NCBI GenBank assembly: GCA_017461605.1
Contig: JAFTXN010000001.1
Coordinates: 53,371 to 117,370 of the forward strand
Reading direction: 5' to 3'
DNA: 64,000 nucleotides
Origin: Bacteroidaceae bacterium
GTDB lineage: Bacteria; Bacteroidota; Bacteroidia; Bacteroidales; Bacteroidaceae
The notes beneath the pieces were generated by a model that was not told the origin of the DNA, did not search any database, and saw nothing but the letters and a program-made list of their open reading frames with translations. Of this stretch, positions 7,369 through 42,968 are shown in pieces; within the stretch, counting starts at the first letter, position 1; each line of letters begins with the position of its first letter. Made by a program: the position numbers and the translations under genes.

Positions 7369-7662
7369 CTGACACTTTGTCGAAAAATCGCGCCTTAGCT
7401 GCGCAAAAATTCACACGGCGTTTAGAAATTTCTACAAGCACTGCACAAAATTCTGCAAGGCGAGTGCAGAATCGGGAAAAGCCTTCGGGATTTTCACGGT
7501 ATGCCGAGCCGCAGCTGAATTTCGTAAAACAAAATTCTGCAAGGCGAGCGCAGAATCGGGAAAAGCCTTCGGGATTTTCACGGTATGCCGAGCCGCAGCT
7601 GAATTTCGTAAAACAAAATTCTGCAAGGCGAGCGCAGAATCGGGAAAAGCCGACCTGAAAAT
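7369..7662. repeat. 21-bp phased modular array, 14 units, including an 84-bp tandem repeat
   Basis: Fourteen units follow in exact 21-bp register. The first begins CTGACACTTTGTCG. Unit 3 contains ACACGGCGTTTAGAAA and unit 4 CTACAAGCACTGCAC. From 7453 an 84-bp segment, itself four 21-bp units, is repeated at 7537 and partly at 7621, nearly identically. A related copy of the 84-bp segment lies at 42843-42926. The array lies between the divergent wzc promoter and the outer-membrane protein gene. Confidence 0.85.
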
Positions 7663-7900
7663 CCCCACCAATTTCCGCCGTCCGAACATGGATTTCTCAT
7701 TTTTTTGAAAAAAAATTTGATTTTCTTGTAACAAATGGCATTCTCATGTGTTAGTATATATGAGGGCGTACTCCGAAGTTGCGCTTTCCGCGATGCCGCT
7801 CCCACCAATGGCCGGACCTGATCCACGCATCTCCGACCCAAAGAGCGCATCCGGCAAGGGTTACAAGGAACTGTCTGAAGTAATTAACATTATTTAAGAT
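7663..7900. other. Intergenic region upstream of the outer-membrane protein gene
   Basis: No convincing gene is seen. The region contains long A and T runs around 7700-7725 and no clear hairpin. Confidence 0.4.
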
Positions 7901-7936
7901 GGGGGGGTAAAATTCCACCTTGCGGACTTACCTTTG
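7901..7936 (+). promoter_or_regulatory. Promoter of the outer-membrane protein gene, with G7 tract
   Basis: TACCTTTG at 7929-7936 matches the -7 box. A run of seven G bases at 7901-7907 sits about where the -33 box should be. No good TTTG box is seen, so promoter spacing could be sensitive to the tract length. Confidence 0.6.
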
Positions 7937-8021
7937 CACGAGCATTAAGAGCCAATCATATCCGCCTTGCAGAATGTTTGCCCTGCCCTCCTCTGAAATC
8001 AGAAAAACACACCTATAAGTC

Positions 8022-10865
8022 ATGAAGCGATTCTCATTTCTCCTCCTGCTGTCGGCCATCGGCATGATGCACGCCGCAGCACAGCAGTTCGGCATCACAG
8101 GCCGCGTCACCGACAACGGAACACCGGCCGCGCCGCTCCCATTGGCGCGCGTGCAGTTGCTGAGCACCGACTCCACCGAGCTGGCCTCGCAGAGCACCGG
8201 CAACAAGGGCACCTTTGCCTTTGCGCCAAAGCAGGCCGGCAGATACATTGTCCGCGTGTCGTTCCTCGGTTTTCGAGACATCTTCCGCAATGTGCAGCTC
8301 ACCAAGCAGAAGCCCTCCGCACGCCTGGGCGACCTGCAACTGGTGCCGGCCGACGTGCAGCTGGGCGAAGCCACCGTTTCGGCCCTCAGTCAGCAACTCA
8401 CCATCAAGGCCGACACGTTCATCTACAATTCCTCCGCATTCCGCGTGCCGCCCGGCGCATCGCTCGCCGCGCTGGTGAAGCAGTTGCCGGGGCTGTCCAC
8501 CGACGCCGATGGCAACCTCACGTTTCAGGGCAAAGCCGTCTCGAGCATCCTCATCAATGGCAAACCGCTCTTCAGCGACACCCAGACCGCGCTGGCCGAC
8601 CTTCCGGCAGCCGCCGTGCAGAACGTGAAAGCCTACGACAAGACTTCGGACGATGCGGAGTTCACGGGAAAAGTTGAAGTGGACAAGGCGACAGTGCTCG
8701 ACCTCACCATCAAAAAAGAGTATATGGCTTCGTGGAATCTCAACCTCGATGCCGGAGGTGGCACAAACGAGCGATGGACCGGCCGCGCCTTTGCCAGCAC
8801 CTTCACTGACCGTCGACGCCTGGCGCTCTATGCTTCGGGAAACAACATCAGCGAGGGCCAACACGTGGACGAGAACGGCAACTGGCGCCACTATGCCAAC
8901 CCAACCGGCAAATACGTGTATAGAAATGTGGGCGGTATGTTCTCGTGGGACAACGGTCTGAAGAACAAAGACGGAGGCTACTTCCGCATCAGTGCCGATG
9001 CCAAGCTGCAACACAACAACCGTAACCGCCATCGCGTGGATGAGACAGAGCGTTTCCTGACCGCCGGCACGCAATATCAATATGTGGACCAAAATCGCCA
9101 CGACCGCTATCGCATGGCCGATGCCAACGTGGCTGTGATTTGGAACATCGATACGCTCAATCGCCTCAGCATCTCTGCCCGCTACCACTACGGCGACGAC
9201 AACGGTTTCCAGCGTCAGTATGCTTCGCTCTACAGTGCGCGCCCCTATCTCTCCAATCCTTATGCCGGTCTTGTGCCTCCGCTCGCCCACGACAGCCTGA
9301 GAAAAATCGGCGTAAACGGTCAGGATCTTTACGAGACCGACTCCGGCCGCGGCCAAAACTATCAGATTTACGGCTTCTACACTCGCCGTTTTGCCAAACC
9401 CGGTCGCTATTTTCAGGCTCGCCTCTTTCATCGTAATGGTTACACACGGGATTATGGCGACCGCTTGGAGCGTTACACCTACTACCATCCCGACGCTCCG
9501 CAGTCCGAGGTGATCAGCCGCGATGCCGGCGGCGACCGTTCGGAAGACATGTTTACGTATATCGACATGGAGTATGAAGAACCGGTGAGCAAGCACATCA
9601 ATCTTGGCATGGGTTACACCTTTTACCATGAGAAGTCTAAAGGACTCTACAACCTCTACCGCCTGAGTCGCTATGCCGAGTACAACAATATGAACCTGCC
9701 CATCGGTGCTCGTCCCACCACGCAGGATTCGCTGGATGCAGTGCGCGACATTGCCAACTCCTTCTACAGCAAAGATAGCGGCATCTGCAACACGCTCTCG
9801 GGTAAGGTTAGCGGTCGCTGGGACAAGGTGGAAACCGAAGCCTATGTCTCGGCAGAGCATTGCGACGAGCAGCTCGATTACGACCGCAACGGCGAGCACT
9901 ACGATCCCGAGCGCAACCTTTGGCGATGGAATACTTTTGCCACGCTTCGCTGGAAGCCGCGCAAGGGACGCGACTTCTACTTTTCCTACCACGGACGCAC
10001 GCGTGACATCCCCCTAAACCAACTTCTGCCCATCACCGACAGCCGCGACCCGATGCACCAAAACATTCAGAATCCCCACTTGAAGAACGGCTGGTACAAC
10101 CGAGCGTACTTCCGCCTCAACTTCAACAAAGAGAAGACGGGCGCCAACTACAACGTCTATGGTGCGTTCGACAATACACACAACGAGGTAACAACCATCA
10201 GCCGCACCGACCCCGTTACAGGAGCTTACATCACTACCCGCGACAACGTGAACGGGAACTTCGGCACCACGCTCAGCTTCAGCACCACCCAGTTGCTCGA
10301 CACCGCCCGCCATTGGACGCTCAACGCCAGCATCTACAGCCGCTTCAGTCGCAGCAAGAGCTACGTGGGCAGCATGGGCGACGCCCTCGGACTGAGCCGC
10401 CTCCATTTCCTCAGCATTGTGCCGCGTGCCAACCTGCGCTACCGCCGCGACAAATGGAGCGTGGTGTTCAACACAGCCTATTACTACGAAGGCTCACACT
10501 ATCGCGAAACGCCGCAGTACGATCAAGACGGACACACCTACGAACTGACGCTCACGCCACAGTGGGAACTGCCTTTCGGCATGCGTCTGAGCGCCGACAT
10601 CACCTACTACGGCCGCACGGGCTACGCTTCCGAACTGCTCAACCACGACCAGTGGCTGCTCAACGCCTCCATCTCGCAAACCTTCCTCAAGAACAAGGCG
10701 CTCACCGTCACACTCCAAGCCACCGACCTGCTGCGCCAGCGCACGTCGGAGTATAGTAGCCTTTCCGCAACGGCACGCAGCTACTCGCGCACCGATGCCT
10801 TCCTGAGCTACGTGCTGCTGCAGGTGTCCTACAAGCTCAACATCAAGAAGGGCGACAAGCGCTGA
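8022..10865 (+). CDS. Outer-membrane beta-barrel protein with carboxypeptidase-regulatory-like domain (TonB-receptor related)
   Basis: This 947-residue protein starts with a signal peptide (MKRFSFLLLLSAIGMMHAAA, cleaved near AAAQQ). A CarboxypepD_reg-like beta-sandwich follows (residues about 24-100, GITGRVTDNGTP), then a plug-like section with ILINGKPLFSD and an AVQNVKAYDK segment near 200. A long C-terminal barrel rich in aromatic/polar beta strands ends in a conserved-looking final strand (FLSYVLLQVSYKLNIKK). This resembles the OMP_b-brl_3 group of SusC/TonB-receptor relatives. The substrate is unknown and no SusD partner is adjacent. It has its own promoter just upstream. Confidence 0.85.
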   Translation: MKRFSFLLLLSAIGMMHAAAQQFGITGRVTDNGTPAAPLPLARVQLLSTDSTELASQSTGNKGTFAFAPKQAGRYIVRVSFLGFRDIFRNVQLTKQKPSARLGDLQLVPADVQLGEATVSALSQQLTIKADTFIYNSSAFRVPPGASLAALVKQLPGLSTDADGNLTFQGKAVSSILINGKPLFSDTQTALADLPAAAVQNVKAYDKTSDDAEFTGKVEVDKATVLDLTIKKEYMASWNLNLDAGGGTNERWTGRAFASTFTDRRRLALYASGNNISEGQHVDENGNWRHYANPTGKYVYRNVGGMFSWDNGLKNKDGGYFRISADAKLQHNNRNRHRVDETERFLTAGTQYQYVDQNRHDRYRMADANVAVIWNIDTLNRLSISARYHYGDDNGFQRQYASLYSARPYLSNPYAGLVPPLAHDSLRKIGVNGQDLYETDSGRGQNYQIYGFYTRRFAKPGRYFQARLFHRNGYTRDYGDRLERYTYYHPDAPQSEVISRDAGGDRSEDMFTYIDMEYEEPVSKHINLGMGYTFYHEKSKGLYNLYRLSRYAEYNNMNLPIGARPTTQDSLDAVRDIANSFYSKDSGICNTLSGKVSGRWDKVETEAYVSAEHCDEQLDYDRNGEHYDPERNLWRWNTFATLRWKPRKGRDFYFSYHGRTRDIPLNQLLPITDSRDPMHQNIQNPHLKNGWYNRAYFRLNFNKEKTGANYNVYGAFDNTHNEVTTISRTDPVTGAYITTRDNVNGNFGTTLSFSTTQLLDTARHWTLNASIYSRFSRSKSYVGSMGDALGLSRLHFLSIVPRANLRYRRDKWSVVFNTAYYYEGSHYRETPQYDQDGHTYELTLTPQWELPFGMRLSADITYYGRTGYASELLNHDQWLLNASISQTFLKNKALTVTLQATDLLRQRTSEYSSLSATARSYSRTDAFLSYVLLQVSYKLNIKKGDKR

Positions 10866-10870
10866 TAATC

Positions 10871-10996
10871 GGCCGCGCAAGGCACGTTTTTCCGCAAGGC
10901 GTTTAGAAAATTCTACAAGCACTGCAGAATTTTCTAAACGCCTTGCAGATTTTTGTGGAATGCGCAGCCATTTTCGACAGTGCGCTGCAGGATGTG
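10871..10996. repeat. 21-bp phased modular array, 6 units
   Basis: Six units in 21-bp register start 5 bp after the stop codon. Units 2-4 make a long dyad at 10894-10946: arms GCAAGGCGTTTAGAAAATTC and its complement around an 11-nt ACAAGCACTGC centre. The same element occurs in opposite orientation at 21231-21281. The hairpin could also act as a terminator for the upstream gene. Confidence 0.85.
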
Positions 10997-11038
10997 CAAA
11001 AGTGCTTCTCATTTCCCCTTTCATCCGCAAAAAAGTTC

Positions 11039-11046
11039 TACCTTTG
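11039..11046 (+). promoter_or_regulatory. Promoter -7 element for pepT
   Basis: TACCTTTG matches TAnnTTTG and lies 69 bp before the pepT start codon. No strong -33 box is visible. Confidence 0.6.
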
Positions 11047-11114
11047 CTTTGCCATCTCCGAAAGCCGGAAGACGGCAGACGAAAAGCGCATCTTAAAACT
11101 CAAAACATACACTC

Positions 11115-12338
11115 ATGGATATTGTAAGCAGATTTCTGAAGTACGTAAGCTTCGACACGCAGTCCGCCGACGACGCCGGCAAAACTCCGAGCACCGACAA
11201 GCAGCTTGTGCTGGCCGAGTATCTGAAGCAGGAACTGACCGAGATTGGTCTGGAAGACATCGAGCTGGATGCCAACGGCTACCTCTATGCCACGCTTCCC
11301 GCCAACACTTCTCGCCAAGTGCCGACCATCGGTTTCATCGCACACATGGACACCAGCCCCGACTGTTCGGGAGCCGGCGTAAGCCCGCGCATCGTTGAGA
11401 AATACGACGGCGGCGACATCGTCCTGGACGCCGAAGCCGGCATCACCACGTCGCCCACGCGCTTTCCCGAGCTGAAAGAACACATCGGCGAGGACATCAT
11501 CGTGACCGACGGCCACACCCTGCTGGGTGCTGACGACAAAGCCGGCATCGCCGAGATTGTGCAGGCGATGGTTTTCCTGAAAAATCATCCTGAGATCGAG
11601 CACGGCCGCATCCGCGTGGGCTTCAATCCGGACGAGGAGATCGGACTCGGTGCTCACAAGTTTGACGTCGAGAAGTTCGGCTGCGAATGGGCCTATACCA
11701 TGGACGGTGGCGAACTGGGCGAGTTGGAATTTGAGAACTTCAACGCCGCTTCTGCCAAAGTGGAGGTAACCGGTGTGAGCGTGCATCCGGGTTACGCCAA
11801 AGGCAAGATGGTGAATGCCGCTCGCGTGGCTGCCGAATTTGTGGCGCAAGTACCGGCCGACGAAACGCCTGAGACGACGCAGGAATACGAGGGATTCTAT
11901 CACCTGCTGGGCATGGAAGGCGGTGTGGAGCATGCATCGCTCACCTACATCATTCGCGACCACGACCGCGCCAAGTTCGAAGCCCGCAAAGAGCGCTTCA
12001 CCGAAATCGCCGCCGCACTCAACGAGCGCTACGGCGAAGGCACGGTGCGCCTCACCCTGTCAGACCAATACTACAACATGCGTGAGAAAATCGAGCCCGT
12101 GATGCACGTCATCGACATTGCCAAGCAAGCCATGGAGGAAGTGGGCGTAAAACCGCGCGTACGCGCCATCCGTGGCGGCACCGACGGTGCGCAACTCTCG
12201 TTCATGGGTCTGCCCTGCCCCAACGTGTTTGCCGGCGGTCTCAACTTCCACGGCCCGCACGAGTTCCTGCCCATCCCGTCGCTGCAGAAGGCGAGCGAAG
12301 TGGTGGTGAAGATTTGCGAACTCACAGCCAAGCGATAA
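11115..12338 (+). CDS. pepT: Peptidase T (tripeptide aminopeptidase)
   Basis: This cytoplasmic M20-family di-zinc aminopeptidase removes the N-terminal residue of tripeptides. The 407-residue length is typical. The expected metal and catalytic residues are visible: H77 and D79 (AHMDTS), D140 (GADDKAG), the E174-E175 pair (NPDEE), D197 (TMDGGE) and H379 in NFHGPHEF near the C-terminus. The PepT dimerisation insert lies between. A strong hairpin follows the gene. Confidence 0.96.
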
Positions 12339-12376
12339 GCAAAACCACGGAAGCACCTCGCTTCCCGACACAAAGA

Positions 12377-12411
12377 AAGGCGAAACCTCGTGAAGGGGTT
12401 TCGCCTTTTTC
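12377..12411. terminator. Rho-independent terminator between convergent pepT and manA
   Basis: Perfect 12-bp arms (AAAGGCGAAACC at 12377-12388 and its complement at 12397-12408) are followed by T residues on the plus strand and A residues on the other side. It can serve both convergent genes. Confidence 0.9.
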
Positions 12412-12455
12412 GTATCCCTTGGCAACCGCCGGCCGCCAAGGTGAGAAACATTTTG

Positions 12456-13439
12456 TCACGATATGTAAACCTCCAGAAAGCCGAACGTGCTCGCGGCATC
12501 GGGCACAATGTCGACGTGCTTCGTAGAGGCCGGAATGAGCACCGTTTGCCCGGCCATGAGACCGAACTCGCGGCCCTCGGCATCGCGCAGCAGCGCACTG
12601 CCCTCGGTGGCCACAAGAATGGAGAAAGAGTCGGCCCCTTCGCGGTCGGCGCGCACCGTCCCCGTGGTGCTCCATCGGCGCACCGTGAAGTAAGGGCAGC
12701 GCACCAAGTCGGCAGGGCGACCATCGCTCAGGCTGTAGTGAGTGCGATAGTCGGCTTGCGCCTCATAATCCAATGCCTCGAGTGCTTGCTCGATGTGGAG
12801 CGGACGCTCGTTCCCCTCACGATCGACGCGCCCAAAGTCGTAGACACGATACGTAACGTCCATGCTCTGTTGTATCTCTACCAGCAAGTTTCCTGCCCCT
12901 ATGGAGTGGATGCGTCCGGCAGGGATGAAGAAACAATCGCCGGCATGGGTGGCGTGTCGGGCCAGCGTCTGCATGAGTGTGCCGTTCTCGATGGAATTGC
13001 GGCATTCGGCCACCGACGTGTTGCGTTGGAAGCCGGCCACCAGCGAAGCCTCCGGCTCACTCTCGAGCACATACCACATCTCCGTCTTGCCATTGGGGAA
13101 CCCCACGCGATGCGCCATCTCATCCGAAGGGTGCACCTGGATGCTCAGGTCCTGCGCCGAGTCGATGAATTTCACCAACAACGGAAAACGTGTGCCGTAT
13201 CGGCGCATCACCTCACCGCCCAACAAATCTGCGCCATAGGTATCGATGAGTTCAGGCAGAGTCAGTCCCTCCTCGTGTCCGGCAGCCACATGCGTCTCGT
13301 TGCCGTTGAGGGCCGAAATCTCCCAACTCTCACCTATGCCGCGCGTCGGCGGAAGATGCTTGAAGCCGGCCAGGCGATCGCCTCCCCAGATGGTAGGCTT
13401 CAGCAAGGGCTGAAAGAAAAGCGGTTCTATGTACGCCAT
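12456..13439 (-). CDS. manA: Mannose-6-phosphate isomerase, class I
   Basis: This zinc enzyme interconverts mannose-6-phosphate and fructose-6-phosphate and feeds GDP-mannose and GDP-fucose synthesis. In the 327-residue sequence the type I cupin metal ligands are visible: Q101 and H103 (IQVHPSD), E120 (KTEMWY) and H178 (PAGRIHSIGAG). GGDRLAGF near the N-terminus and the short form without the eukaryote-type insert fit the bacterial family. It has its own promoter at 13471. Confidence 0.94.
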   Translation of the reverse strand: MAYIEPLFFQPLLKPTIWGGDRLAGFKHLPPTRGIGESWEISALNGNETHVAAGHEEGLTLPELIDTYGADLLGGEVMRRYGTRFPLLVKFIDSAQDLSIQVHPSDEMAHRVGFPNGKTEMWYVLESEPEASLVAGFQRNTSVAECRNSIENGTLMQTLARHATHAGDCFFIPAGRIHSIGAGNLLVEIQQSMDVTYRVYDFGRVDREGNERPLHIEQALEALDYEAQADYRTHYSLSDGRPADLVRCPYFTVRRWSTTGTVRADREGADSFSILVATEGSALLRDAEGREFGLMAGQTVLIPASTKHVDIVPDAASTFGFLEVYIS

Positions 13440-13470
13440 ATTCCTATATACCTTTTACATTTTATGGGGA

Positions 13471-13478
13471 CAAAGTTA
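13471..13478 (-). promoter_or_regulatory. Promoter -7 element for manA
   Basis: The minus strand reads TAACTTTG, 32 bp before the ATG. The bases directly upstream (CACTCGCCTTGCAC on the minus strand) resemble the block shared by the wzc, fkp and GH92 promoters. Confidence 0.6.
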
Positions 13479-13527
13479 GTGCAAGGCGAGTGGAATACAA
13501 AGTAAAACGCGAAGCTTTTACTTTTAT

Positions 13528-13695
13528 TCCCGAGCCGAAGCCTAACTTGGGCGAAGCCACCGCTACATTCTGACACTTTGTCGAAAAAGCGGGCTTCGGA
13601 TGTGCAAAAATCTGCAGTGCTTGTAGAAAATTCTGCAGTGCTTGTAGAATTTTCTAAACGCCTTGCAGATTTCTTCGCAAAGCGTTCACAAAAAA
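13528..13695. repeat. 21-bp phased modular array, 8 units
   Basis: Eight units in register lie between the manA promoter and the 3' end of tRNA-Leu. They include the CTGACACTTTGTCG cap unit at 13570 and two successive CTGCAGTGCTTGTAG units at 13612 and 13633, followed by CTAAACGCCTTGCAG. The two leftmost units are weaker matches. Confidence 0.8.
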
Positions 13696-13733
13696 AGGCC
13701 GCCGAACTCAGAAAGTCGACAGCCTCATCTGGG

Positions 13734-13815: not shown

Positions 13816-13880
13816 AAAAAACACGGCGCGAAGATAGGGATTTTTTCGAAGACTCGCCGATGATGCTCGGCTTTTTTTCG

Positions 13881-13888: not shown

Positions 13889-13954
13889 CCTCATTCGGGC
13901 AAAAACATGCAGTGCCCGGCAGAATTGTTAACCCCTTTTGCAACACTTACTCAC

Positions 13955-33956: not shown

Positions 33957-36821
33957 TTAACTGCGGCTAACCTGCAAGCCTTTCTTGGAAACGCTCATCT
34001 CAACAAAGCGAGCGTTGGGTGCCAACGGATTTTCGGTCAGCAACTCCCGAATGCGCAACGCGGCCTGCGGGTCTTTCGCCACCATATACATGAAACCGCC
34101 TCCGCCGGCACCGGGCAGCTTGTAGCCCAAGCAGAAATCGTCCACGCGGCGGCAGAGTTCGTCCACCGCAGGCGGATTGGTTCCGCTGTCGAGGAGTTTG
34201 TTTTGCTCCCAAGTGCGTCGTACCAACCGACCGTATTCCGAAAAATCGCCACGCTGCATCACCTCAAACAGAATGCCGGCGTGCTGTTTCATCTCCTGAA
34301 GCAGCGAGATGTGCTCGGTATTGTTGAGGAACATGCCTCGCACGATTTCGGCCAGGATGTGCTTGGCCGTGCGCGTAATTCCTGTGTAGTAAAGCAGATG
34401 ACAAGGGCGTAATTCCGGGTCTTTGAAGAGCGTATCCGGAAGCCAACGGGCCGAAGCCTCCTGTGCGAAGCCGGGCTCTGTGTGCAGCATCTTCACCCCA
34501 TGCAGAACGCCTCCGTATTGGTCTTGCCAGCCTCCGCCGGTGGTCAGAAGCTGTTCTAAAATGAGCGTGCGGCTGCAAATTTCATTCTTGTCCCATCCGA
34601 GACCGCAGAAGTCCGACACAGCGCCCAGCACAGTGGCTGCCAAAATACTGCTTGTGCCCAGGCCCGAACCGGCAGGCACAGCCGAAAGCAGCGTAACCTC
34701 TATGCCGGCACCGAAGTGCGCCAGCTGTTCTTCCAGCGTGGCAAAAGAATGTACGGAATACTCCGGCAAGAAACCGGCAAGCGCCAGGGCGGCCTTGGGA
34801 ATGGAGAAGGGAGAACCCACCTTGTTGAATCGACGCAGTTCGTCGTAGGTAGAAATACGCTCAATGGCTCCCAAATCGATGGAACGGCAGATGATGGCTC
34901 GTTCGTGCGACGGCTTGACGTAGACCTGCAAGGGAGGCAATCCGTTCAGCTCGATAGCCACATTGACAACGCTTCCGCCCACCAACAGACTGTAGGGCGG
35001 TGTGTCGGTCCAGCCTCCGGCCAAGTCGATACGCACCGGGCTGCGTCCCCAGACGATTTGGTCAGTGTGCGTCGTCATTCGCGGTTCGCAGCGATGGCGC
35101 AGCGCATTCTCGGTCAGACCTTCACGCAGCAGGCCAAAGGCTTTGGCTGCCTCAGCGTCGGAGTCGGCAGATGCTGAAGGCACTGCCGCCGACTGCAGGC
35201 GGTGATACTCCGAACGAAACATGGCATCGTGAATGCGCGTCATCAGCGGAGCATCCTCGGGAAGCGGTGCCGGCAACGGCAGACCGCCTGTGGAAAACCG
35301 CGCGGCCATGTCCTTGAGATTTACTTGGTAGAACACGCTTTTCTGCCAGTTTCGAGCAATGGCAGGATAGTTCTCGCAAGCATAGACTTCGCGCTGCCGA
35401 ACGAGCCGAACGAGGTTGGCGCTTGCCGCAATGCCATCGGCCGACAGGCGACGCAATGCACGCCATTCGTCGGCCATCGCAGCATCGGGAGCATCGCTCA
35501 GATACCACGTGAGCCAGCGTCCCAAGGCATCGACATCGGGCACAACGACAAAGAGAGGCGCCGCCTGTATGTCGGTAGCCCCGTCCAGATCGTCGACACC
35601 CAGTCCGCGTTTCTCCAACCACTGTTTCAGCGGTTGTCCGAGGTATTGCGTGTCGGCGTCGTGCGGCGCGCCACGGAAGGCGTCGCAGTAGCCGTAAGGC
35701 CGAAGCACATAGTGGGTTTCGCCGATGGGCGTGATGTCCACGCATTGCCCTTCGGCCAATTGCACCTCCCATCGGTTGACGGGCACACCCGTGATGACGT
35801 TGCGCGAAGCGTATTGCCACGTCTCAGCTACGCACGAGTTTTCGATCCAAACGTATTCGTTTTTCTCGCCGGGCCGGCTCTGCACACGTGCATTCTGTGT
35901 AAAGACCGACGGATGGTGTTTCACCTCCTTCTGAATGATGAGCCGCTGATCCTTCACGCGATTCTGAATGGCCATGGTGGAAGTGAGCAGCTCGGGAGTG
36001 GTTCCGAAATGATAAAACTCGCCTCCGGGCAGAGGCAGAATGGCTACGGAAAGATCGGAAAGCGTTTCGTCGGGGCGCGAAGGGTGCGTGCCGAGCGCGC
36101 AACCAAATTCGGAATATAAGTCATAGGCTCGGATGTCTTCGCCCGTGCCGCCACATTTCTGCACAAGGCGCTCCACAGCCCGATCGGAAAGCAGCCAAAC
36201 ACCGATGTCCATCAGCGAAAAATGCGTCTGCATGTAGCGTGCCTGTTCCTCGGTCGAGGGTTTTTGCAGCATGAAGTCGAGTCGATCGGGACTTTGGCGA
36301 TCCATCATGAAAACGCCGTGGTGTGAATTCTGCTCCGGGTCGCCCCACAAGCCGTAGCACACCACATCCGCCTCCGGCACCTCCTGCAACGGCTCGGTGG
36401 CTCGCAGCAACACGTCGCCCGAGGCGATGAGCGTGTGGAGGCCGGCAGGAGCTTTCTGCATGATGGCTTCGTAGAGCGGCATTTGGAGGGCAAGCAGGTC
36501 CTGCCCGATGCGCTGACCGCGCTCCCAACGGAACACCGGCACCGGTGTCAGCACTTTTCCACCCGTAGCATAAGCAGGAAGCCGACGGCTTTGTCCACCG
36601 GCGTGCAGCAGGATGCGCTTTTCGCTCGCAAGCCACCGGCCGAACGACAGCTCGGGGGCTTCGCTCCGATGACACTCGCCCAAAAGCCAGGCTGTGCCCC
36701 CGCCCGAACCTATCTTGCGTCCGGCAGGGTCGGAAGTGCAGTAACAAACAGCGGGATCGGCACCCGTAATCGTATGAAAGCCTTCCACGGTGTTGGGAGG
36801 CAGAGATAGAAGCTTCTTCAT
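33957..36821 (-). CDS. fkp: Bifunctional L-fucokinase / GDP-L-fucose pyrophosphorylase
   Basis: This 954-residue enzyme salvages L-fucose to GDP-fucose for surface glycans in Bacteroidales. The N-terminal guanylyltransferase half has GSGGGTA (38-44) and HAGGQSRRLPAY (from 73). A left-handed beta-helix-like middle follows (VWIENSCVAE). The C-terminal GHMP kinase half, beginning RSPVRIDLAGGWTDTPPY, has the ATP loop PAGSGLGTSS (716-725) and GAGGGG near 904-909. It is transcribed from 36882. It could supply GDP-fucose to the GT11 enzyme at 63 kb. Confidence 0.97.
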   Translation of the reverse strand: MKKLLSLPPNTVEGFHTITGADPAVCYCTSDPAGRKIGSGGGTAWLLGECHRSEAPELSFGRWLASEKRILLHAGGQSRRLPAYATGGKVLTPVPVFRWERGQRIGQDLLALQMPLYEAIMQKAPAGLHTLIASGDVLLRATEPLQEVPEADVVCYGLWGDPEQNSHHGVFMMDRQSPDRLDFMLQKPSTEEQARYMQTHFSLMDIGVWLLSDRAVERLVQKCGGTGEDIRAYDLYSEFGCALGTHPSRPDETLSDLSVAILPLPGGEFYHFGTTPELLTSTMAIQNRVKDQRLIIQKEVKHHPSVFTQNARVQSRPGEKNEYVWIENSCVAETWQYASRNVITGVPVNRWEVQLAEGQCVDITPIGETHYVLRPYGYCDAFRGAPHDADTQYLGQPLKQWLEKRGLGVDDLDGATDIQAAPLFVVVPDVDALGRWLTWYLSDAPDAAMADEWRALRRLSADGIAASANLVRLVRQREVYACENYPAIARNWQKSVFYQVNLKDMAARFSTGGLPLPAPLPEDAPLMTRIHDAMFRSEYHRLQSAAVPSASADSDAEAAKAFGLLREGLTENALRHRCEPRMTTHTDQIVWGRSPVRIDLAGGWTDTPPYSLLVGGSVVNVAIELNGLPPLQVYVKPSHERAIICRSIDLGAIERISTYDELRRFNKVGSPFSIPKAALALAGFLPEYSVHSFATLEEQLAHFGAGIEVTLLSAVPAGSGLGTSSILAATVLGAVSDFCGLGWDKNEICSRTLILEQLLTTGGGWQDQYGGVLHGVKMLHTEPGFAQEASARWLPDTLFKDPELRPCHLLYYTGITRTAKHILAEIVRGMFLNNTEHISLLQEMKQHAGILFEVMQRGDFSEYGRLVRRTWEQNKLLDSGTNPPAVDELCRRVDDFCLGYKLPGAGGGGFMYMVAKDPQAALRIRELLTENPLAPNARFVEMSVSKKGLQVSRS

Positions 36822-36881
36822 GCTTTCTTGGTTTTGTCAGAAGGTAATGAGCCCCCTTGCTCAAGGACTCCTCGTTTTCGG

Positions 36882-36889
36882 CAAAGATA
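36882..36889 (-). promoter_or_regulatory. Promoter -7 element for fkp
   Basis: The minus strand reads TATCTTTG, 61 bp before the ATG, preceded by CGCTCGCCTTTCAC. About 40 bp of further upstream sequence (36896-36935) also matches the wzc promoter region. Confidence 0.65.
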
Positions 36890-36942
36890 GTGAAAGGCGA
36901 GCGAAAAGGGCGTGAAAGAACGCAGTTATTTCACACGCACTT

Positions 36943-37131
36943 CTCAGAGCCACATCCGAAATTGCAGAAAGCCGAGGTTTGATTGCAGGCAGGTCGCAGC
37001 AAAAGTGGCAAAGCCTGCCACTTTTTTGGGAGTGCTTGCCACTTTTTTGGCAGGCCTTGCCAGTTATCTCGCCGTCCGCTGCAAAAGTTTCCCGAGAGCC
37101 TGCAGAAATATCCCGACGGCTCGCAGAAATA
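36943..37131. repeat. 21-bp phased modular array, 9 units (TGG/CCA arm type)
   Basis: Nine units keep exact 21-bp register. The best are TGGCA-AAGCC-TGCCA (37006), TGGGAGTGCTTGCCA (37027) and TGGCA-GGCCT-TGCCA (37048), each followed by CTTTTT or similar. Later units shift to TCCCG...GCAGAAATA words while holding the period. It lies between the fkp promoter and the plsC terminator. Confidence 0.87.
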
Positions 37132-37141
37132 CAAAACGACC

Positions 37142-37181
37142 GCGCCCGATGTCGAGCATGGCAGGCTCGGCATCGGGCGCG
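37142..37181 (-). terminator. Hairpin terminator downstream of plsC
   Basis: Arms GCGCCCGATG and CATCGGGCGC are extended by an inner CGAGC/GCTCG pair around a 7-nt loop. On the minus strand it is followed by GGTCGTTTTG. It lies 38 bp after the plsC stop. Confidence 0.78.
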
Positions 37182-37219
37182 GTATTTCTGTTTTCGGGAA
37201 TAGTCCGTCGGCAGACGGA

Positions 37220-37978
37220 TCATTGGTCCTTGTTCTGCACATAGCCCTGATGACGTTCGGGCAGTGCTTCCATGATGACGCGATAGGCCTCATCCATGGT
37301 GGCCTTCACAGCCTCGGGCCCGCTCTCCGCAGGTACAATCGGCCGGTGTATCACCAGGCGCATGGGGTGGCGGTTCACAAAATTGAAGCCGGCCATACGG
37401 GTGAGCACGTCGAACGAGCCGTCGATGGTCATCGGGACTACAGGCAGCCCGATGTCGTCGGCCAGCTGGAAAGCCCCCTTGCGGAACAAGCCCATGTGCC
37501 CAGTGAAAGTGCGGCTTCCCTCAGGGAACACCACCAACGACGTGCCGTCCTTCAGTGTGCGCCGTGCGCTGTCGATGGTGTGCCGGATGGCTTTCGGCCC
37601 CGACTTGTCGACAAAGATGAAGCCGGCTTTCTCGCAAGCGTAGCCCACGAGGGGAATTTTGCGCAGCGACTTCTTCATCATCCACTTGAAGTTGCGGTGC
37701 AGATAGCCATAGATCAGAAAAATGTCCATCGGGCCCTGATGATTGGCCACGAAGACATAGCTCTGTCCGGGTTGCAGGTGCTCACGTCCTTCCACCTTGA
37801 CGGGCAGCAGCAAGACGTTGCAGAATATCTTGGACCAAATGCGGCCGGGCCAATATCCCCAGAAATGAGCACTGAACAGCATGCAGCCCACGCTGACTAT
37901 GATGGCGGTCAGGCCGGTCACGACCAGCAAAATCGGGAGTGCGATGCAGAACTGATAAACTTTGTAGAGGATTTTCAT
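37220..37978 (-). CDS. plsC: 1-acyl-sn-glycerol-3-phosphate acyltransferase
   Basis: This 252-residue membrane-bound enzyme makes phosphatidic acid from lysophosphatidic acid. An N-terminal hydrophobic segment (about 8-35) is followed by the catalytic H-x4-D motif in NHQGPMD, near residue 77. The GFIFVDKS, FPEGSRTF and VPMTIDGS motifs of the PlsC family follow in order. It is the last gene of the minus-strand run that starts with the GT2 gene at 42480. Confidence 0.93.
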   Translation of the reverse strand: MKILYKVYQFCIALPILLVVTGLTAIIVSVGCMLFSAHFWGYWPGRIWSKIFCNVLLLPVKVEGREHLQPGQSYVFVANHQGPMDIFLIYGYLHRNFKWMMKKSLRKIPLVGYACEKAGFIFVDKSGPKAIRHTIDSARRTLKDGTSLVVFPEGSRTFTGHMGLFRKGAFQLADDIGLPVVPMTIDGSFDVLTRMAGFNFVNRHPMRLVIHRPIVPAESGPEAVKATMDEAYRVIMEALPERHQGYVQNKDQ

Positions 37979-38066
37979 GACTGCTTATTTTAATGTTTGT
38001 TCTTCGTGTGTAAGCTTTTCAAGAGTTGTTTCGGCATTGCTGCCATCCGATACGCATTCTCACGCA

Positions 38067-39227
38067 TCACTCGGCGCGTTGCAGGGTGATGAGGTTGATT
38101 TCCGGCCAAGCACCGAGGCGGAACGGCAACATCACTTCGCCGGCTCCCAGACTCACGTGCAGCGTTTGCCCCTGCGTGGTGTAAGTTCCGCCCCACTCCG
38201 GATAAAACCAGGCTGCGGGTGAGAAATTGCCTATCTTCAGTTGCATGCCGTGCGTATGCCCCGACAGGGTCAGCGGAATGTCTGTGTCGGGCACCACACG
38301 CCGCATCCAGTGCGACGGGTCGTGCGAGAGAAGCACCTTGAAGCATTCGGGCGAAAGTCCTTGCTGTGCCCGCGGCAGGTCGCCCAAAGCCGGAAACGGC
38401 GGACGGCCATCGTTCTCCACACCCACTATGGCCAGGCTGTCACCACAGCGATGTAGCAACACGTGCTCATTGAGCAGAAGTTTCCACCCCATGTTCCGTT
38501 CGCTCTCCTGCAACAAGCGCACATTTTCACGCCGCGCCTCGTCGCTCGGCCACGGGTAGTACGACAGATAATCGTGATTACCCATCACCGAGATGACACC
38601 GTCGGGGGCGCAGAATTGGGAGAGGATGTTCGCAAACTCCTTCAGTTCCTCAGCCCGAGTGTTCACTAAATCGCCCGTAAACACTACGACGTCGGGACGA
38701 GCGGCATTCACACTGTCTACAATGCGTTTCACCACATCAGCCTTGCCGCTCAGCGTTCCCAGATGCAGGTCCGAAATCTGCGCGATGCGATAGCCATGAA
38801 AAGCCCGCGGCAGTTGTGCGAAGGTATATGTGACGGGGCGCACCACCACCTGCTTGTAGCCCAACGTAAACCCATAGATGAGGGTTGCCATGCACGCTGC
38901 CGACAACACACCGCCCACAGCCAAAAGCGCCCGACGCACCGCCAATTTGCGCACCGGCACACGGAGCAACACGAAGAGACTCAACAGCAATTCGGGAAAG
39001 CCGAGTGTGAGGGTGCAGGTCAGTATCAAGGTGGTACGATAGGCCGTGTCGGGAGTGTAGCGTTCGCAGGCGGCCATCAGACATAGGGCAGCAAAAAGCA
39101 GCAAGTTGGGGAGGAGTATCATGAAACGCCACGGCCATCCCACACGGGGCTTCAGCAGAAATCGGTTCAGCACCCAGGCGGGGAAGAACAGCAGGAGAAA
39201 CAACGGGATGAGTATGCGGAATATCAT
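38067..39227 (-). CDS. Membrane-anchored metallophosphoesterase (YkuE/YaeI-like)
   Basis: This 386-residue protein has about four N-terminal hydrophobic helices (residues 1-125). A calcineurin-like phosphoesterase domain follows with all five metal motifs: ISDLHLG, FTGDLVN, GNHDY, LLSHDP and LSGHTHG. Homologues such as YkuE and LpxG-type enzymes act on membrane-surface substrates, but this one's substrate cannot be read from sequence. It lies 31 bp after the MetH-activation-like gene and 88 bp before plsC. Confidence 0.86.
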   Translation of the reverse strand: MIFRILIPLFLLLFFPAWVLNRFLLKPRVGWPWRFMILLPNLLLFAALCLMAACERYTPDTAYRTTLILTCTLTLGFPELLLSLFVLLRVPVRKLAVRRALLAVGGVLSAACMATLIYGFTLGYKQVVVRPVTYTFAQLPRAFHGYRIAQISDLHLGTLSGKADVVKRIVDSVNAARPDVVVFTGDLVNTRAEELKEFANILSQFCAPDGVISVMGNHDYLSYYPWPSDEARRENVRLLQESERNMGWKLLLNEHVLLHRCGDSLAIVGVENDGRPPFPALGDLPRAQQGLSPECFKVLLSHDPSHWMRRVVPDTDIPLTLSGHTHGMQLKIGNFSPAAWFYPEWGGTYTTQGQTLHVSLGAGEVMLPFRLGAWPEINLITLQRAE

Positions 39228-39258
39228 GGAGGTATCTGTTAAGTTTTTACATTGTATA

Positions 39259-40215
39259 TCAATCTCTGTGCGTCGTGTGTGGCACTCTGCAATTCAGATG
39301 GCGCGAGAGATACTTGCGGAGCGTGCTTTCAGGCAAACCGCGTCGAGCAGCGTAATCGGCCAGTTGGTCCTCGCCAATGCGTCCCACAGCGAAATGGCGT
39401 GCTTCCGCGTGCGACAGCATCAGACCGCTGACCGCAGCGTGGGGCTGCATCATTCCGTGCTCGGTGAGGCGAATGCCGATGGAAGCCATATCGAGAATTT
39501 CATCCAGCACGAAGTTGAAACTCAGGTCGGGCAGCGAAGGGTAGCCCACGGCAGGACGAAGACCACGATAGTCTTCTGCAAATAGCGCAGCCGCAGGCAG
39601 ACATTCCTGCGGTGCGTATCCCCACAGGTGGCGTCGCACCTCGAGATGCAGGTATTCGGCCGCGGCTTCGGCCAATCGGTCGCACAAGGTCTGACACAGC
39701 ATGCGCCGAAATGGATCGGCCTCATCGGTCGTCGGCAGTGCTGTTACTGCGGTGGCAAACAGACCGATGAATTTCTCAGACTCTGTCCGGGGATTTTCGC
39801 CCCCACCCTGCGGGCTCACGAAGTCGGCCAGGCAGTGACACAGACCATCGGCGGCATCGGGGCGCTGCTGTCGCAGCAACGGGAGCCGCTTCTCCGTTTT
39901 CCCCTCCTCAAGGAGCACCCACACATCGTCCTCGCAGCTTCGCGCAGGGAGCAAGGCGAATTTTGCCTTCGCCGTCAGCGATGCCCCTTCCCGATGAAGC
40001 CAACGCATGGCCTCGTCGTACAAGCGTACGGCCTCGGCGGCCTCACTCCTGTCGGCTTCGGGGAAATGGTCTATCCACTGTGTCCGACACGCCGGACAGC
40101 AATGCAAATCGGCCACACCCGAGAAGCGAGTGCGCAAGCCCCATGCGTGAAAAAAGTAGAGCCAGTTAACGTAAGGCACAAGGCTTGCCGAAGTGTATTC
40201 CTGCGACACATACAT
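39259..40215 (-). CDS. Stand-alone methionine-synthase (MetH) activation-domain protein
   Basis: This 318-residue protein resembles the C-terminal reactivation domain of cobalamin-dependent methionine synthase. The middle has DRLAEAAAEYLHLEVRR and WGYAPQE, followed by RPAVGYPSLPDLS and LTEHGMMQPHAAVSGLMLSH, the SAM-binding signatures of that domain. No homocysteine-, folate- or B12-binding modules are present. It would supply SAM for reductive reactivation to a MetH encoded elsewhere. The N-terminal 150 residues are less conserved. It lies between the phosphoesterase gene and pyrC. Confidence 0.85.
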   Translation of the reverse strand: MYVSQEYTSASLVPYVNWLYFFHAWGLRTRFSGVADLHCCPACRTQWIDHFPEADRSEAAEAVRLYDEAMRWLHREGASLTAKAKFALLPARSCEDDVWVLLEEGKTEKRLPLLRQQRPDAADGLCHCLADFVSPQGGGENPRTESEKFIGLFATAVTALPTTDEADPFRRMLCQTLCDRLAEAAAEYLHLEVRRHLWGYAPQECLPAAALFAEDYRGLRPAVGYPSLPDLSFNFVLDEILDMASIGIRLTEHGMMQPHAAVSGLMLSHAEARHFAVGRIGEDQLADYAARRGLPESTLRKYLSRHLNCRVPHTTHRD

Positions 40216-40252
40216 GGCGAAAGGCTTTTAGGATTTTTCTTTATCCCATCTG

Positions 40253-41593
40253 TCAATGGCAAAAGCTGACGGCCTGTCCTCGGAAGTCGGAGTCGGTGAT
40301 GTGGCCCTCGCTGTAAGCCAGGCAGCCATTGCAGTAGGTTTTCTCCACCGCCCATCTGAAGGTATGTCCCTCCAACGGACTCCATCCGCAACGGCTCTCG
40401 ATGCGATTGGGAGTGAGTTTCCACGACTGCCGACGCACCAGCACAATGTCGGCCTTGTAGCCTTCGCGCAAGTAACCTCGGTTCTCGATGCCGAAGATGC
40501 GAGCCGGATGGTGACACATCAGACGCACCACATCGGTCAAGCCGAGCACGCCCTCGTCCACCAAGCCCAGCATGGCGGGCAACGAGAACTGCACCATGGG
40601 CATGCCCGACACGGCTTTGGCCGCGCCTCCCTGCTTCTCACGGAGCAAATGGGGAGCATGGTCGGTGCCGATGGCCGAAATCCGCCCATCGGTCAGAGCC
40701 GCCCGAAGCGCCTCACGGTCGGCCGCCGTCTTGATGGCAGGATTGCACTTGATGCGTGCGCCCAATCGCGCATAGTCGGCATCGGTATAGAGCAAGTGCG
40801 GCACACAAGCCTCTGCGGTGATTCGGGCATCGGCATCGGCGGAGAAGAGTTCGAGTTCGCGAGCCGTGGAAACGTGCGCCACATGCAACCGCGCACCATA
40901 TTCGGTGGCTAGATTTACAGCCAGGGCGGTGGAGTTGTAACACGCCTCTTCCGAGCGTATGCGAGCATGGCAGCAGATGCCGGGTTCGGTGCCCAGTTCT
41001 GCAGTAAGCCGTGCCATATTTTCGTTGATGATGTCGGTATCCTCGCAATGGGTCATGATGGGCATTCGCACGGTGCTGAAAATCTCGCGAAGTGCTTCCT
41101 CCTTGTCCACAAGCATATTGCCGGTGGACGAGCCCATGAAGAGTTTTACGCCGGCCACCTTCCGCGGGTTGAGCGTGCGCAGCAACGGAACGTTGTCGGC
41201 CGTCGCACCAATGAAGAAGCCGTAGTTGACGCAGCACTTGCGGGCTGCGGTTTCCATCTTCTCATTCAGCGTTTCGGCAGAGGTAGTCTGCGGCACGGTG
41301 TTGGGCATGTCGAGCACCGTGGTCACGCCTCCGGCCAATGCCGCCCGACTCTCGGTGTACATATCAGCCTTGTGGGTAAGTCCCGGATCGCGGAAGTGAA
41401 CGTGCTCATCAATGACGCCGGGCAGCAAGAAGCACCCCGACGCATCCACAACGATGTCTGCCGGAATGGAAGGCACAGCCTCCACTCCCTCGATGATTTC
41501 CTCAATGCGGTCGTTGTCTATCAACACCGCTCCGACGAAGGTGCGGTTTTCGTTGACAATCGTAGCGTTTTTTATCAGCTTTCTGCGATGCAT
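40253..41593 (-). CDS. pyrC: Dihydroorotase
   Basis: This 446-residue amidohydrolase closes carbamoyl-aspartate to dihydroorotate in pyrimidine synthesis. The HxH metal motif is in GVIDEHVHFRDPGLTHK, the bridging lysine position in GVKLFMGSSTG, then MTHCED, VAHVSTA and GTDHAPH. The start at 41593 gives MHRRKLIKNATIVNE. Allantoinase is a related alternative, but the length and the neighbours (GT2 upstream, MetH-activation protein downstream) match the dihydroorotase operon of Bacteroidales. Confidence 0.93.
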   Translation of the reverse strand: MHRRKLIKNATIVNENRTFVGAVLIDNDRIEEIIEGVEAVPSIPADIVVDASGCFLLPGVIDEHVHFRDPGLTHKADMYTESRAALAGGVTTVLDMPNTVPQTTSAETLNEKMETAARKCCVNYGFFIGATADNVPLLRTLNPRKVAGVKLFMGSSTGNMLVDKEEALREIFSTVRMPIMTHCEDTDIINENMARLTAELGTEPGICCHARIRSEEACYNSTALAVNLATEYGARLHVAHVSTARELELFSADADARITAEACVPHLLYTDADYARLGARIKCNPAIKTAADREALRAALTDGRISAIGTDHAPHLLREKQGGAAKAVSGMPMVQFSLPAMLGLVDEGVLGLTDVVRLMCHHPARIFGIENRGYLREGYKADIVLVRRQSWKLTPNRIESRCGWSPLEGHTFRWAVEKTYCNGCLAYSEGHITDSDFRGQAVSFCH

Positions 41594-41736
41594 GGCGATG
41601 TTTGTCTGTGTGCCGCAAGGCACTACACATTATTATATATTATATACGCGCGTCCACACGAGGAAGACGCGCGAACGCAAAGTAAGTCAAAAAGATGTCG
41701 GCACGCACTTCCGAGGAAGCGGAGTGCCACCTACCA

Positions 41737-42480
41737 TCAGCGGCGAGGCTTGATCTTTCCTGTCAGGGCCGCCCAGCGCAACCGGATGACACCGAAGAGC
41801 GCTTCGCTAAAGATGCCACCGCTCATCTTGCTCGTACCGAGCTCTCTGTTCACAAAGATGACAGGCACCTCCTTGATGCGAAATCCCAGCTTATGGGCGG
41901 TAAACTTCATTTCTATCTGGAAAGCATATCCCTTGAAGCGTACAGCGTCCAGGTCGATGGTTTCGAGAACCTGCCGACGGTAGCACTTAAATCCGGCAGT
42001 GGTATCACAGATGGGCACACCGGTAATGAAGCGAACATACTTCGAGGCGAAATAGCTCATGAGCACTCTGCCCATCGGCCAGTTTACCACGTTAACTCCG
42101 CTCACATAGCGCGAGCCGATGGCCACGTCGTATCCGTCATCGGCACAAGCCGCATAGAGACGCGGCAGGTCGGCCGGCGCATGACTGAAGTCGGCATCCA
42201 TCTCAAACACATAGTCGTAGCCGTGTTCCATCGCCCACTTGAAGCCGGCGATGTAGGCCGTCCCGAGTCCCAACTTTCCCTTGCGCTGCACGAGGAAGAG
42301 GCGGTCGCCCTCTGTCTCCATCAGACGCTTGACAATGTCCGCCGTACCGTCGGGCGAACCATCGTCGATGATGAGTATGTGAAAACACTTCTCAAGCGCA
42401 AAGACGGCTCGGATGATGTTCTCGATGTTTTCCTTTTCATTGTACGTGGGAATGATTACCACGCTGTCGCTATTATGCAT
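41737..42480 (-). CDS. Polyprenyl-phosphate mannose synthase-like GT2 glycosyltransferase
   Basis: This 247-residue soluble GT2 enzyme has IIPTYNEKENI, the nucleotide site IIDDGSPDGTADI, the DxD-type EMDADFSHAP and the GSRYVSG segment typical of dolichyl-phosphate mannose synthases of the DPM1 type. The product would be a lipid-linked sugar donor at the inner membrane, likely mannose but not proven. It is the first gene of the run with pyrC and has a promoter at 42590. Confidence 0.9.
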   Translation of the reverse strand: MHNSDSVVIIPTYNEKENIENIIRAVFALEKCFHILIIDDGSPDGTADIVKRLMETEGDRLFLVQRKGKLGLGTAYIAGFKWAMEHGYDYVFEMDADFSHAPADLPRLYAACADDGYDVAIGSRYVSGVNVVNWPMGRVLMSYFASKYVRFITGVPICDTTAGFKCYRRQVLETIDLDAVRFKGYAFQIEMKFTAHKLGFRIKEVPVIFVNRELGTSKMSGGIFSEALFGVIRLRWAALTGKIKPRR

Positions 42481-42589
42481 ATTGCAGTATTAATAGGTTT
42501 GTATTTCATTGACGGACAACAGCCGTTGCTGCCTCGACGGAGCGAAACGGGAAACGACTTCGCACATCGCTACGCCCATCTTGACGAAG

Positions 42590-42597
42590 CAAAGATA
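42590..42597 (-). promoter_or_regulatory. Promoter -7 element for the GT2-pyrC-plsC operon
   Basis: The minus strand reads TATCTTTG, 110 bp before the GT2 start codon. Confidence 0.6.
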
Positions 42598-42758
42598 GAG
42601 CATGGAGCGCAAAACTCCAAATTTAAGAGCGCTGTACAAGCATTTATGCCCCCACGGCTGCCGCTCCGGAACATCCTGCCACCTTGCAAAACATCTCAAA
42701 CGAACTCCCAACACAACCGACAAGCCCACACGCCACCGCGCATTGTGTCAGAAATAGC
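42598..42758. other. Intergenic DNA between the GT2 promoter and the 42.8 kb array
   Basis: No gene is seen. The spacing (about 160 bp) between the promoter box and the array cap matches the wzc and HU loci. Confidence 0.4.
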
Positions 42759-42968
42759 TTGACACTTTGTCGGAAAATGGAGGCCGGCGCGAGCAAAAAT
42801 CTACACGGCGTTTAGAATTTTCTGCAAGCACTGCACAAAATTCTGCAAGGCGAGCGCAGAATCGGGAAAAGCCTTCGGGGGTTTCACGGTATGCCGAGCC
42901 GCAGCTGAATTTGGTGGGACAAAATTCTGCAAGCACTGCGCGAAAACGGAGAAAGCACACCGAGATGT
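42759..42968. repeat. 21-bp phased modular array, 10 units, with a copy of the 84-bp segment
   Basis: Ten units in register start with TTGACACTTTGTCGG and include ACACGGCGTTTAGAATTTT, CTGCAAGCACTGCAC and an 84-bp block (42843-42926) closely matching the tandem repeat at 7453-7641. The array ends at the GH92 stop region. Confidence 0.85.

What the first reader, a model, noticed from the sequence alone, without database searches (positions are those of the whole stretch)
7369..42968. Intergenic arrays built of modules in an exact 21-bp register
At least nine intergenic regions (7369-7662, 10871-10996, 13528-13695, 16734-16964, 21207-21290, 27155-27322, 32087-32233, 36943-37131, 42759-42968) can be cut into consecutive 21-nt units, about 77 in all. 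The register holds even where the words change. Units typically carry a GC-rich 15-nt part followed by a 6-nt A/T tract (AAAATT, ATTTT, CTTTTT). Twenty-one bp is two helical turns, so A/T tracts and dyads recur on one helix face, which predicts curvature or side-by-side protein binding. None is seen in the AT-rich capsule genes. I do not recognise a named family. Outer units of each array are weaker matches.
Basis: partly seen in the sequence, partly recalled or inferred. Interest (0 to 1): 0.9.

Follow-up and report, generated by a model that had tools for sequence, protein, structure and literature searches.

The report
Chromosome-wide 21-bp lattice of palindromic sites
The odd 21-letter repeats between genes are the visible tips of a faint repeating pattern, in step every 21 letters, that also runs through many of the genes by choice of synonymous codons and is missing from recently acquired DNA, as if the chromosome were written to be coated by one DNA-binding protein.

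Summary
The nine arrays are real: 77 units in one 21-bp register, to within a base. They are not purely intergenic. Synonymous third codon positions carry the same period in the window and 19 other stretches. A template learned from third positions alone is a dyad-symmetric core plus A/T tract (RCAWGSCWTGY + AAATTT), the anatomy of the array units, and holds on held-out DNA. Register runs from genes into spacers: 92 of 146 confident boundaries agree within 1 bp. In the window 31 of 32 genes left of 51 kb carry it, 0 of 9 in the integrase-led capsule island. It is maintained against a sister species. Of 40 genomes of the genus 16 have coding z>3 (9 have z>5), 0 of 15 from other families. Templates differ between genomes. 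Best reading: a sequence-specific, cooperative nucleoid filament, one dyad per two helical turns. The protein is unknown; my HU-HIG prediction failed, and hand-typed array words of most other genomes did not match their coding DNA best.

The parts
7369..7662 (.). array, 14 units of 21 bp (includes an 84-bp tandem of 4 units, 2.5 copies), between divergent genes
10871..10996 (.). array, 6 units, between co-directional genes
13528..13695 (.). array, 8 units, beside tRNA-Leu (13730-13816, -)
16734..16964 (.). array, 11 units (TTGCAAGGCTTGCAA type), between convergent genes
21207..21290 (.). array, 4 units
27155..27322 (.). array, 8 units, beside the HU gene
32087..32233 (.). array, 7 units (TGGCAGTGCTTGCCA type)
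36943..37131 (.). array, 9 units (TGGCAAAGCCTGCCA type); register slips by one base in the last three
42759..42968 (.). array, 10 units
582..50908 (.). lattice-bearing chromosome: 31 of 31 called genes of 300 bp or more from 582 to 50908 carry the 21-bp template at third codon positions with z of 4.0 or more against 8 synonymous shuffles; the truncated gene 2-502 has z 1.4
51255..63932 (+). lattice-free island: tyrosine integrase, then capsule/polysaccharide genes; 9 genes with z from -2.7 to 1.1

Best explanation
SHOWN: the resident chromosome carries a degenerate 21-bp dyad-symmetric site (here six A/T, AAATTT, plus a 15-nt core SSRCAWGSCWTGYSS) repeated head to tail in a shared register. 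The period is 21.0-21.1 bp, two turns of B-DNA, so the dyads lie on the same face. The template differs between species of the genus. INFERRED: an abundant homodimeric, sequence-specific DNA-binding protein binds each dyad and touches its neighbours, so that it coats long stretches as a filament. In this species the dominant 7.04-bp component suggests three contacts per 21 bp. Intergenic arrays would be high-affinity sites that nucleate and fix the register; genes are coated by spreading and have evolved codons that fit. The likely role is chromatin-like organisation of self DNA; newly acquired DNA is not yet adapted. The protein is not identified.
For: Third-position A/T correlation at 7n codons, z 19-23 at the first three lags against 20 synonymous shuffles; score z 17 window, 57 for 19 stretches (28 pooled). 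Coding-only template gain 1000 here and 1622 in G012 (best of six starts, ranges 521-1000 and 1042-1622) against at most 15 in the negative genome G004. Held out: own template on window third positions +415 (12 permuted templates mean 29, max 135); on own intergenic DNA, never used in its training, +116 (permuted max -660). Dyad symmetry appeared without being imposed in G012 (four starts agree) and here (spacers included in training). Register continuity: 92 of 146 confident boundaries within 1 bp, R 0.64, rotated control 0.21; G012 19 of 23, G062 25 of 33, and G026 39 of 44, though the G026 fit was started from its array word. Phase extrapolated from genes agrees within 2 bp at 18 of 18 array ends (gene-side confidence only 0.30-0.65). 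G012 phase coherence of the 21.04-bp wave between different genes 0.42 at 1 kb, 0.28 at 5 kb; opposite strands 0.50 for the 10.52-bp wave; five shuffles at 10.52 bp at most 0.11. Against sister species G019: 2,791 sites, both kinds of change beyond all 2,000 phase-shifted controls. Absent from integrase/capsule islands. Period CI 7.03-7.04 bp here (x3 = 21.1), 10.52-10.54 in G012 (x2 = 21.05).
Against: No protein was found; presence of HU-HIG proteins did not predict the coding signal (new genomes p = 0.71, all 40 p = 0.15; intergenic signal p = 0.04). Hand-typed array words score best on their own genome's coding DNA only for G012 (and the own word on G019); this genome scored best with G012's word. 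A pooled intergenic A/T template fitted own coding no better than 8 of 60 permuted ones. Register continuity was not significant in G019, G010, G016 and G014, and weak in G002, with their own fitted templates, which had not settled on one optimum. The G012 coding template gains nothing in absolute terms on G012 spacers (-25, permuted max -233). The rotated control is not quite flat (R 0.21). L031, L094 and L075 have 21-bp arrays without a coding signal. 3 of 8 held-out stretches have negative gain and 33 of 84 genes there are not above the shuffle threshold, including folP-like and SpoU-like genes. How selection could act on about 100,000 weak sites is unexplained.
Confidence: 0.6

Rival explanations
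1. A DNA-mechanical 'structural code': A/T positions phased with the helix bend or writhe the chromosome, as in the known 10-11-bp A-tract periodicity, without a sequence-specific reader.
For: A-tracts are spaced 21 bp in coding DNA; G012 and G010 have a strong 10.52-bp component; third-position encoding is known for the 10-11-bp signal (PMC4132750, passages).
Against: The template fixes C and G identities and a dyad, differs between congeneric genomes, and in this species has its main component at 7.04 bp, not 10.5. Coherence of the 21.04-bp wave reaches kilobases in G012.
Confidence: 0.2
2. A mutational or repair imprint: a positioned nucleoprotein modulates damage and repair with its own period, so the pattern is a scar, not a selected code.
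For: Seen in genes of unrelated functions (RecQ, RecJ, topoisomerase, RbfA, glycosidases); would explain slow build-up and absence from new islands. My comparison with G019 was not polarised and cannot tell mutation from selection.
Against: Needs a register fixed over evolutionary time; base-specific dyads of the same kind as the array words; in G012 even codon position 2 follows the template (A/T obs/exp 0.89-1.11).
Confidence: 0.12
3. Self-marking: the lattice is a 'self' signature read by a nuclease or silencing system that spares coated DNA, which would give each site a strong effect.
For: The capsule island and integrases lack it; templates differ between species of one genus; strong per-site selection would be explained (inference).
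Against: No such system was looked for; unlatticed islands are tolerated in the genome.
Confidence: 0.06
4. The arrays are ordinary dispersed repeats (REP/MITE-like) or terminators and the coding signal is unrelated.
For: Arrays share 94-197-nt families; units are palindromes with T-runs; some other Bacteroidales have arrays without a coding signal.
Against: Same register in genes and spacers; a template learned without arrays reproduces their anatomy; arrays lie between divergent, convergent and co-directional genes.
Confidence: 0.02

Closest known systems
Genome-wide 10-11-bp A-tract periodicity ('structural code'; PMC4132750, PMC3431218, passages read)
   Same: A/T phasing with the helix, mainly in third codon positions, persistent along some chromosomes, generally absent in phages
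   Different: here a 21-bp unit with a dyad-symmetric, base-specific, genome-specific template in register with intergenic arrays, and kilobase coherence in G012
Omega (ParB of pSM19035) heptad arrays, parS (PMC9499535, passages)
   Same: contiguous 7-bp sites bound by dimers in a left-handed spiral on nearly straight DNA; 3 x 7 bp = 21 bp matches the 7.04-bp component here (this arithmetic is mine)
   Different: six plasmid sites of 7-10 non-palindromic repeats, not a chromosome; no such protein identified here
DNA uptake sequences (USS; PMC7811141 seen only as a listing with the start of its abstract)
   Same: a short self signature spread over a genome
   Different: to my recollection separate sites, not a contiguous phased tiling
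REP/BIME intergenic palindromes (recalled, no paper read)
   Same: intergenic palindrome clusters
   Different: not known to continue into genes in a fixed register

Membership tests
10-11-bp A-tract periodicity (structural code) | dominant period 10-11 bp | tested here: not met
   this genome: 7.04 bp dominant, 10.54 minor; G012, G010 and G016 do have 10.5 bp
10-11-bp A-tract periodicity (structural code) | encoded preferentially at third codon positions | tested here: met
10-11-bp A-tract periodicity (structural code) | signal length about 100 bp, A/T steps only | tested here: not met
   r at 7n codons fades only at 200-300 bp here and is 0.07 at 588 bp in G012; C/G-specific dyad
Omega/RHH heptad arrays | 7-bp sequence period | tested here: met
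   Fourier peak 7.04 bp, CI 7.03-7.04; protein contacts themselves not tested
Omega/RHH heptad arrays | cognate ribbon-helix-helix protein | not tested
   no RHH search was run
HU-HIG protein as reader | presence predicts the coding lattice within the genus | tested here: not met
   written prediction failed on 20 new genomes, p = 0.71
REP/BIME | confined to intergenic DNA | tested here: not met
REP/BIME | associated RAYT transposase | not tested
   none
Rfam RNA families | match above gathering score in the arrays | tested here: not met
   the only match in the window is a tRNA

The most novel reading that the evidence does not exclude
Bacterial chromatin with a species-specific password: the resident chromosome, genes included, is a tiled binding site for one polymerising protein whose recognition sequence changes between species of one genus. 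Codon choice is subordinated to the coat, and uncoated foreign DNA is recognisable.
Probability: 0.35. Interest if true: 0.98.

Novelty: categorically new. Interest (0 to 1): 0.93.

Why it matters
If right, a bacterium writes a sequence-specific chromatin code through its genes. That would run against the common view (recalled) that most nucleoid proteins bind with little sequence specificity, give a new selective force on synonymous codons, and supply a gene-by-gene marker of horizontal transfer (the edge of the island at 51 kb is visible). The change of template within one genus poses a tractable question: what co-evolves with it.

Tried and rejected
(1) Protein heptads or amphipathic helices as cause of the 7-codon period: a weak signal of that kind exists at codon positions 1 and 2 (r about 0.01, kept by the shuffles), but the third-position signal is five times larger, vanishes in synonymous shuffles, and its phase is shared across genes and strands in G012.

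Canonical HU comparison: several extracted frames were wrong, nothing concluded.

(3) Word-swap test with array words typed from outputs: own-genome word best only for G012, and the own word for G019; negative for own, G026, G002, G010, G062, G016. G012's word has unspecified positions, which may favour it.

(4) Pooled intergenic A/T template on own coding: 8 of 60 permuted templates did as well; not supportive.

(5) Random-start fits for G010, G016, G014, G002 did not settle on one template; I draw no motif for them. G026's fit rose from 269 to 507 only when started from its array word, so its register test is not fully independent of the arrays.

(6) L032 and L047 looked like independent named genomes but are contigs of G012 and G010; not counted as replication.

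(7) Indel lengths against G019: 16 in coding and 28 in spacers, mostly 1-2 nt; no multiple-of-21 pattern seen.

(8) z-scores rest on 8-20 shuffles and are noisy on short loci: named loci repeated with new shuffles moved (L039 7.7 then 3.9, L060 3.7 then 9.0), and one locus reached -4.0.

(9) Literature: searches listed no report of a 21-bp lattice; the library holds open-licence PMC papers only. Searches were format errors, so PMC3940949 was seen only as a listing.
Full report
Setting. The window is 64 kb of contig C8 of a 2.06-Mb genome in 10 contigs, 81% complete. Its topoisomerase subunit A gene (13886-16642, PF00521) is nearest to Prevotella sp. MGM2, an uncultured Alloprevotella and uncultured Prevotellaceae (78-82% identity), so the organism is a Prevotella/Alloprevotella-like Bacteroidales. 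I called genes with a simple hexamer-scored caller of my own; no independent annotation was available.

The nine intervals fall into 77 consecutive 21-mers. Intergenic autocorrelation in the window has its highest z at 84, 21, 63 and 42 bp (9.9, 9.5, 7.3, 7.0 against 30 dinucleotide-preserving shuffles), and 19 other stretches of the genome have z 18.7 at lag 21. With the nine arrays removed, the window's remaining spacers still have z 5.6 at lag 21. One unit word has 234 matches genome-wide, 0 reversed, and 334 in the sister species G019, against 0-4 in each of 59 other relatives, where reversed controls do as well.

The unexpected part: genes carry it too. Coding DNA also peaks at 21, 42 and 63 bp (217 genes over 600 bp). 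Split by codon position, the A/T correlation sits in third positions: r = 0.053, 0.056, 0.047, 0.040, 0.035, 0.028 at 7, 14, 21, 28, 35, 42 codons, z 18.9, 20.0, 22.9 at the first three against 20 synonymous-codon shuffles. Position 1 reaches at most z 4.0; position 2 is fixed by the shuffle. Fourier analysis gives 7.04 bp (bootstrap CI 7.03-7.04) here, 7.05 in G019, and 10.52 bp in G012 and G010; these are harmonics of 21.0-21.1 bp, two turns of B-DNA.

How widespread. Of 40 genomes of the genus scored on 2-345 kb of coding DNA each, 16 have z above 3 for the coding signal and 9 above 5; of 15 genomes from other families of the order none exceeds 2.7; 50 kb of E. coli K-12 has z 0.9 (20 genomes of other families were fetched, 5 of them and G022 dropped for too little sequence). 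As z rests on 12 shuffles and a negative locus once reached -4.0, values of 3-4 are uncertain. Of the 80 named loci, four exceed 3 (L032, L039, L060, L047) and six in a repeat with new shuffles (L032, L060, L035, L033, L039, L104); L032 and L047 are the genomes G012 and G010. Coding and intergenic signal go together: Spearman 0.65 over 35 genomes, 0.67 (p = 0.0013) over 20 of the genus, 0.36 over 94 single loci. Caveat: uncalled coding DNA in 'intergenic' stretches can inflate this. L031, L094 and L075 have 21-bp arrays without a coding signal.

The template. I fitted a hidden-phase model in which phase advances one per base with rare slips. In G012, trained on third positions plus spacers without imposed symmetry, four random starts agree (gain 1747.7). 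The template is a palindrome, TA-n-CTCSGAG-n-TA plus eight free positions, and 98% of bases have a posterior above 0.5. Codon positions 1 and 2, not used in training, follow it (A/T observed/expected 0.77-1.21 and 0.89-1.11), so even amino-acid choice seems touched. In this genome the unconstrained fit, spacers included, is also palindromic. Trained on third positions alone, with symmetry imposed, the best of six starts (gains 521-1000; G004 at most 15) reads AAATTT plus SSRCAWGSCWTGYSS. It was learned from genes only.

Held-out tests. A template trained on 11 stretches gains +415 on the window's third positions (12 permuted templates: mean 29, maximum 135), +116 on own intergenic DNA (permuted maximum -660), +96 on G019 coding (permuted maximum -0.1) and +101 on G019 spacers (permuted maximum -37). 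The G012 template fails on this genome (-553), and this genome's template does worse than permuted ones on G012. On G012's own spacers the G012 coding template scores -25, better than permuted (maximum -233) but no gain in absolute terms. On eight further held-out stretches the own template gains +310 in sum (three of eight negative) against -283 to -310 for six shuffles; 51 of 84 genes of 150 codons or more exceed the 99th percentile of shuffles.

One register through genes and spacers. Using the coding-only template, I compared the phase extrapolated from third positions with the phase of the adjoining spacer. Of 146 confident boundaries (spacer posterior over 0.8, gene posterior over 0.4; the number of all boundaries was not printed), 65 agree exactly and 92 within 1 bp (R 0.64, nominal p about 1e-26). 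Rotating spacers by random 0-20 bp lowers R to 0.21, not quite flat. With coding-fitted templates of their own, G012 (19 of 23 within 1 bp) and G062 (25 of 33) agree, and so does G026 (39 of 44), whose fit was started from its array word; G002 is weak (12 of 22, p 0.01); G019, G010, G016 and G014 are not significant; the negative genome G004 gives one boundary. At the nine arrays the extrapolated phase agrees within 2 bp at 18 of 18 ends, with gene-side confidence of only 0.30-0.65. In G012 the 21.04-bp wave is coherent between different genes (0.42 at 1 kb, 0.28 at 5 kb; the 10.52-bp wave 0.39 and 0.03), and opposite-strand windows within 2.5 kb agree (0.50, 10.52-bp wave, 120 pairs), against at most 0.11 in five synonymous shuffles. 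It is therefore a property of the DNA, not of reading frames.

Maintained, and absent from newcomers. Over the syntenic part aligned to G019 (about 85% identity), third positions that are G/C where the template wants G/C differ less, and A/T there differ more, than under shifted phases: 2,791 sites, both statistics beyond all 2,000 controls. At the central position 9 of 161 G/C sites differ, against 18.5% overall. The direction of change was not polarised. In the window 31 of 32 genes (300 bp or more) before 51 kb have z of 4.0 or more; the exception is the truncated first gene. The nine genes after 51 kb, a tyrosine integrase followed mostly by capsule genes, have z between -2.7 and 1.1. Of the 33 unlatticed genes I scanned ten: two integrases, three polysaccharide genes, a VapE-like and a weak TIR-domain match, one without family, but also a folP-like and a SpoU-like gene.

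Reading. A contiguous, phased, dyad-symmetric, genome-specific site is what a homodimer that touches its neighbours every two turns would need. Spacers, less constrained, hold the best sites and would nucleate the coat. The 7.04-bp component here resembles the heptad spacing of the omega protein on parS (PMC9499535, passages). That it is a protein coat is inference. I could not name the protein: HU-HIG presence failed a written prediction. Known relatives in kind are the 10-11-bp periodic signals of bacteria (PMC4132750, PMC3431218, PMC7537859, passages), which share third-position encoding but, in the passages I saw, not the 21-bp dyad or the shared register. I found no report of this in searches.

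Confidence. Existence of a 21-bp lattice shared by genes and arrays in this genome: about 0.95. Sequence-specific cooperative protein as its reader: about 0.6. Function as chromatin or self mark: open.

Noticed in passing
window 27155-27322 and 7367-7567, 42787-42956: Synteny with the fetched G019 contig ends inside the array at 27155-27322, and the G019 array there also aligns with the arrays at 7369 and 42787: an array sits at a rearrangement breakpoint.
   Followed up: no
window 26685-26957 (-): A canonical HU gene (PF00216, E 7.9e-32) lies next to the array 27155-27322.
   Followed up: partly
window 51255-52517: Tyrosine integrase at the edge of the lattice-free capsule island; the lattice score could serve as a gene-by-gene detector of horizontal transfer.
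   Followed up: partly
window 7195-7227, 13463-13495, 36874-36906, 45323-45355: Four copies of a 33-nt repeat around GCAAAGATAGTGAAAGGCGAGCGAAA at or just upstream of the starts of four minus-strand genes, similar in wording to some array units (AAGGCGAGCG).
   Followed up: no
L075 12284, L094 9358, L031 1, L039 12480, L129 4351, L116 17238: Other Bacteroidales have 21-bp spacer arrays with quite different words, often dyads, some without a coding signal.
   Followed up: partly
window 7445-7651: 84-bp tandem repeat, exactly four 21-bp units, 2.5 copies at 99% matches.
   Followed up: no
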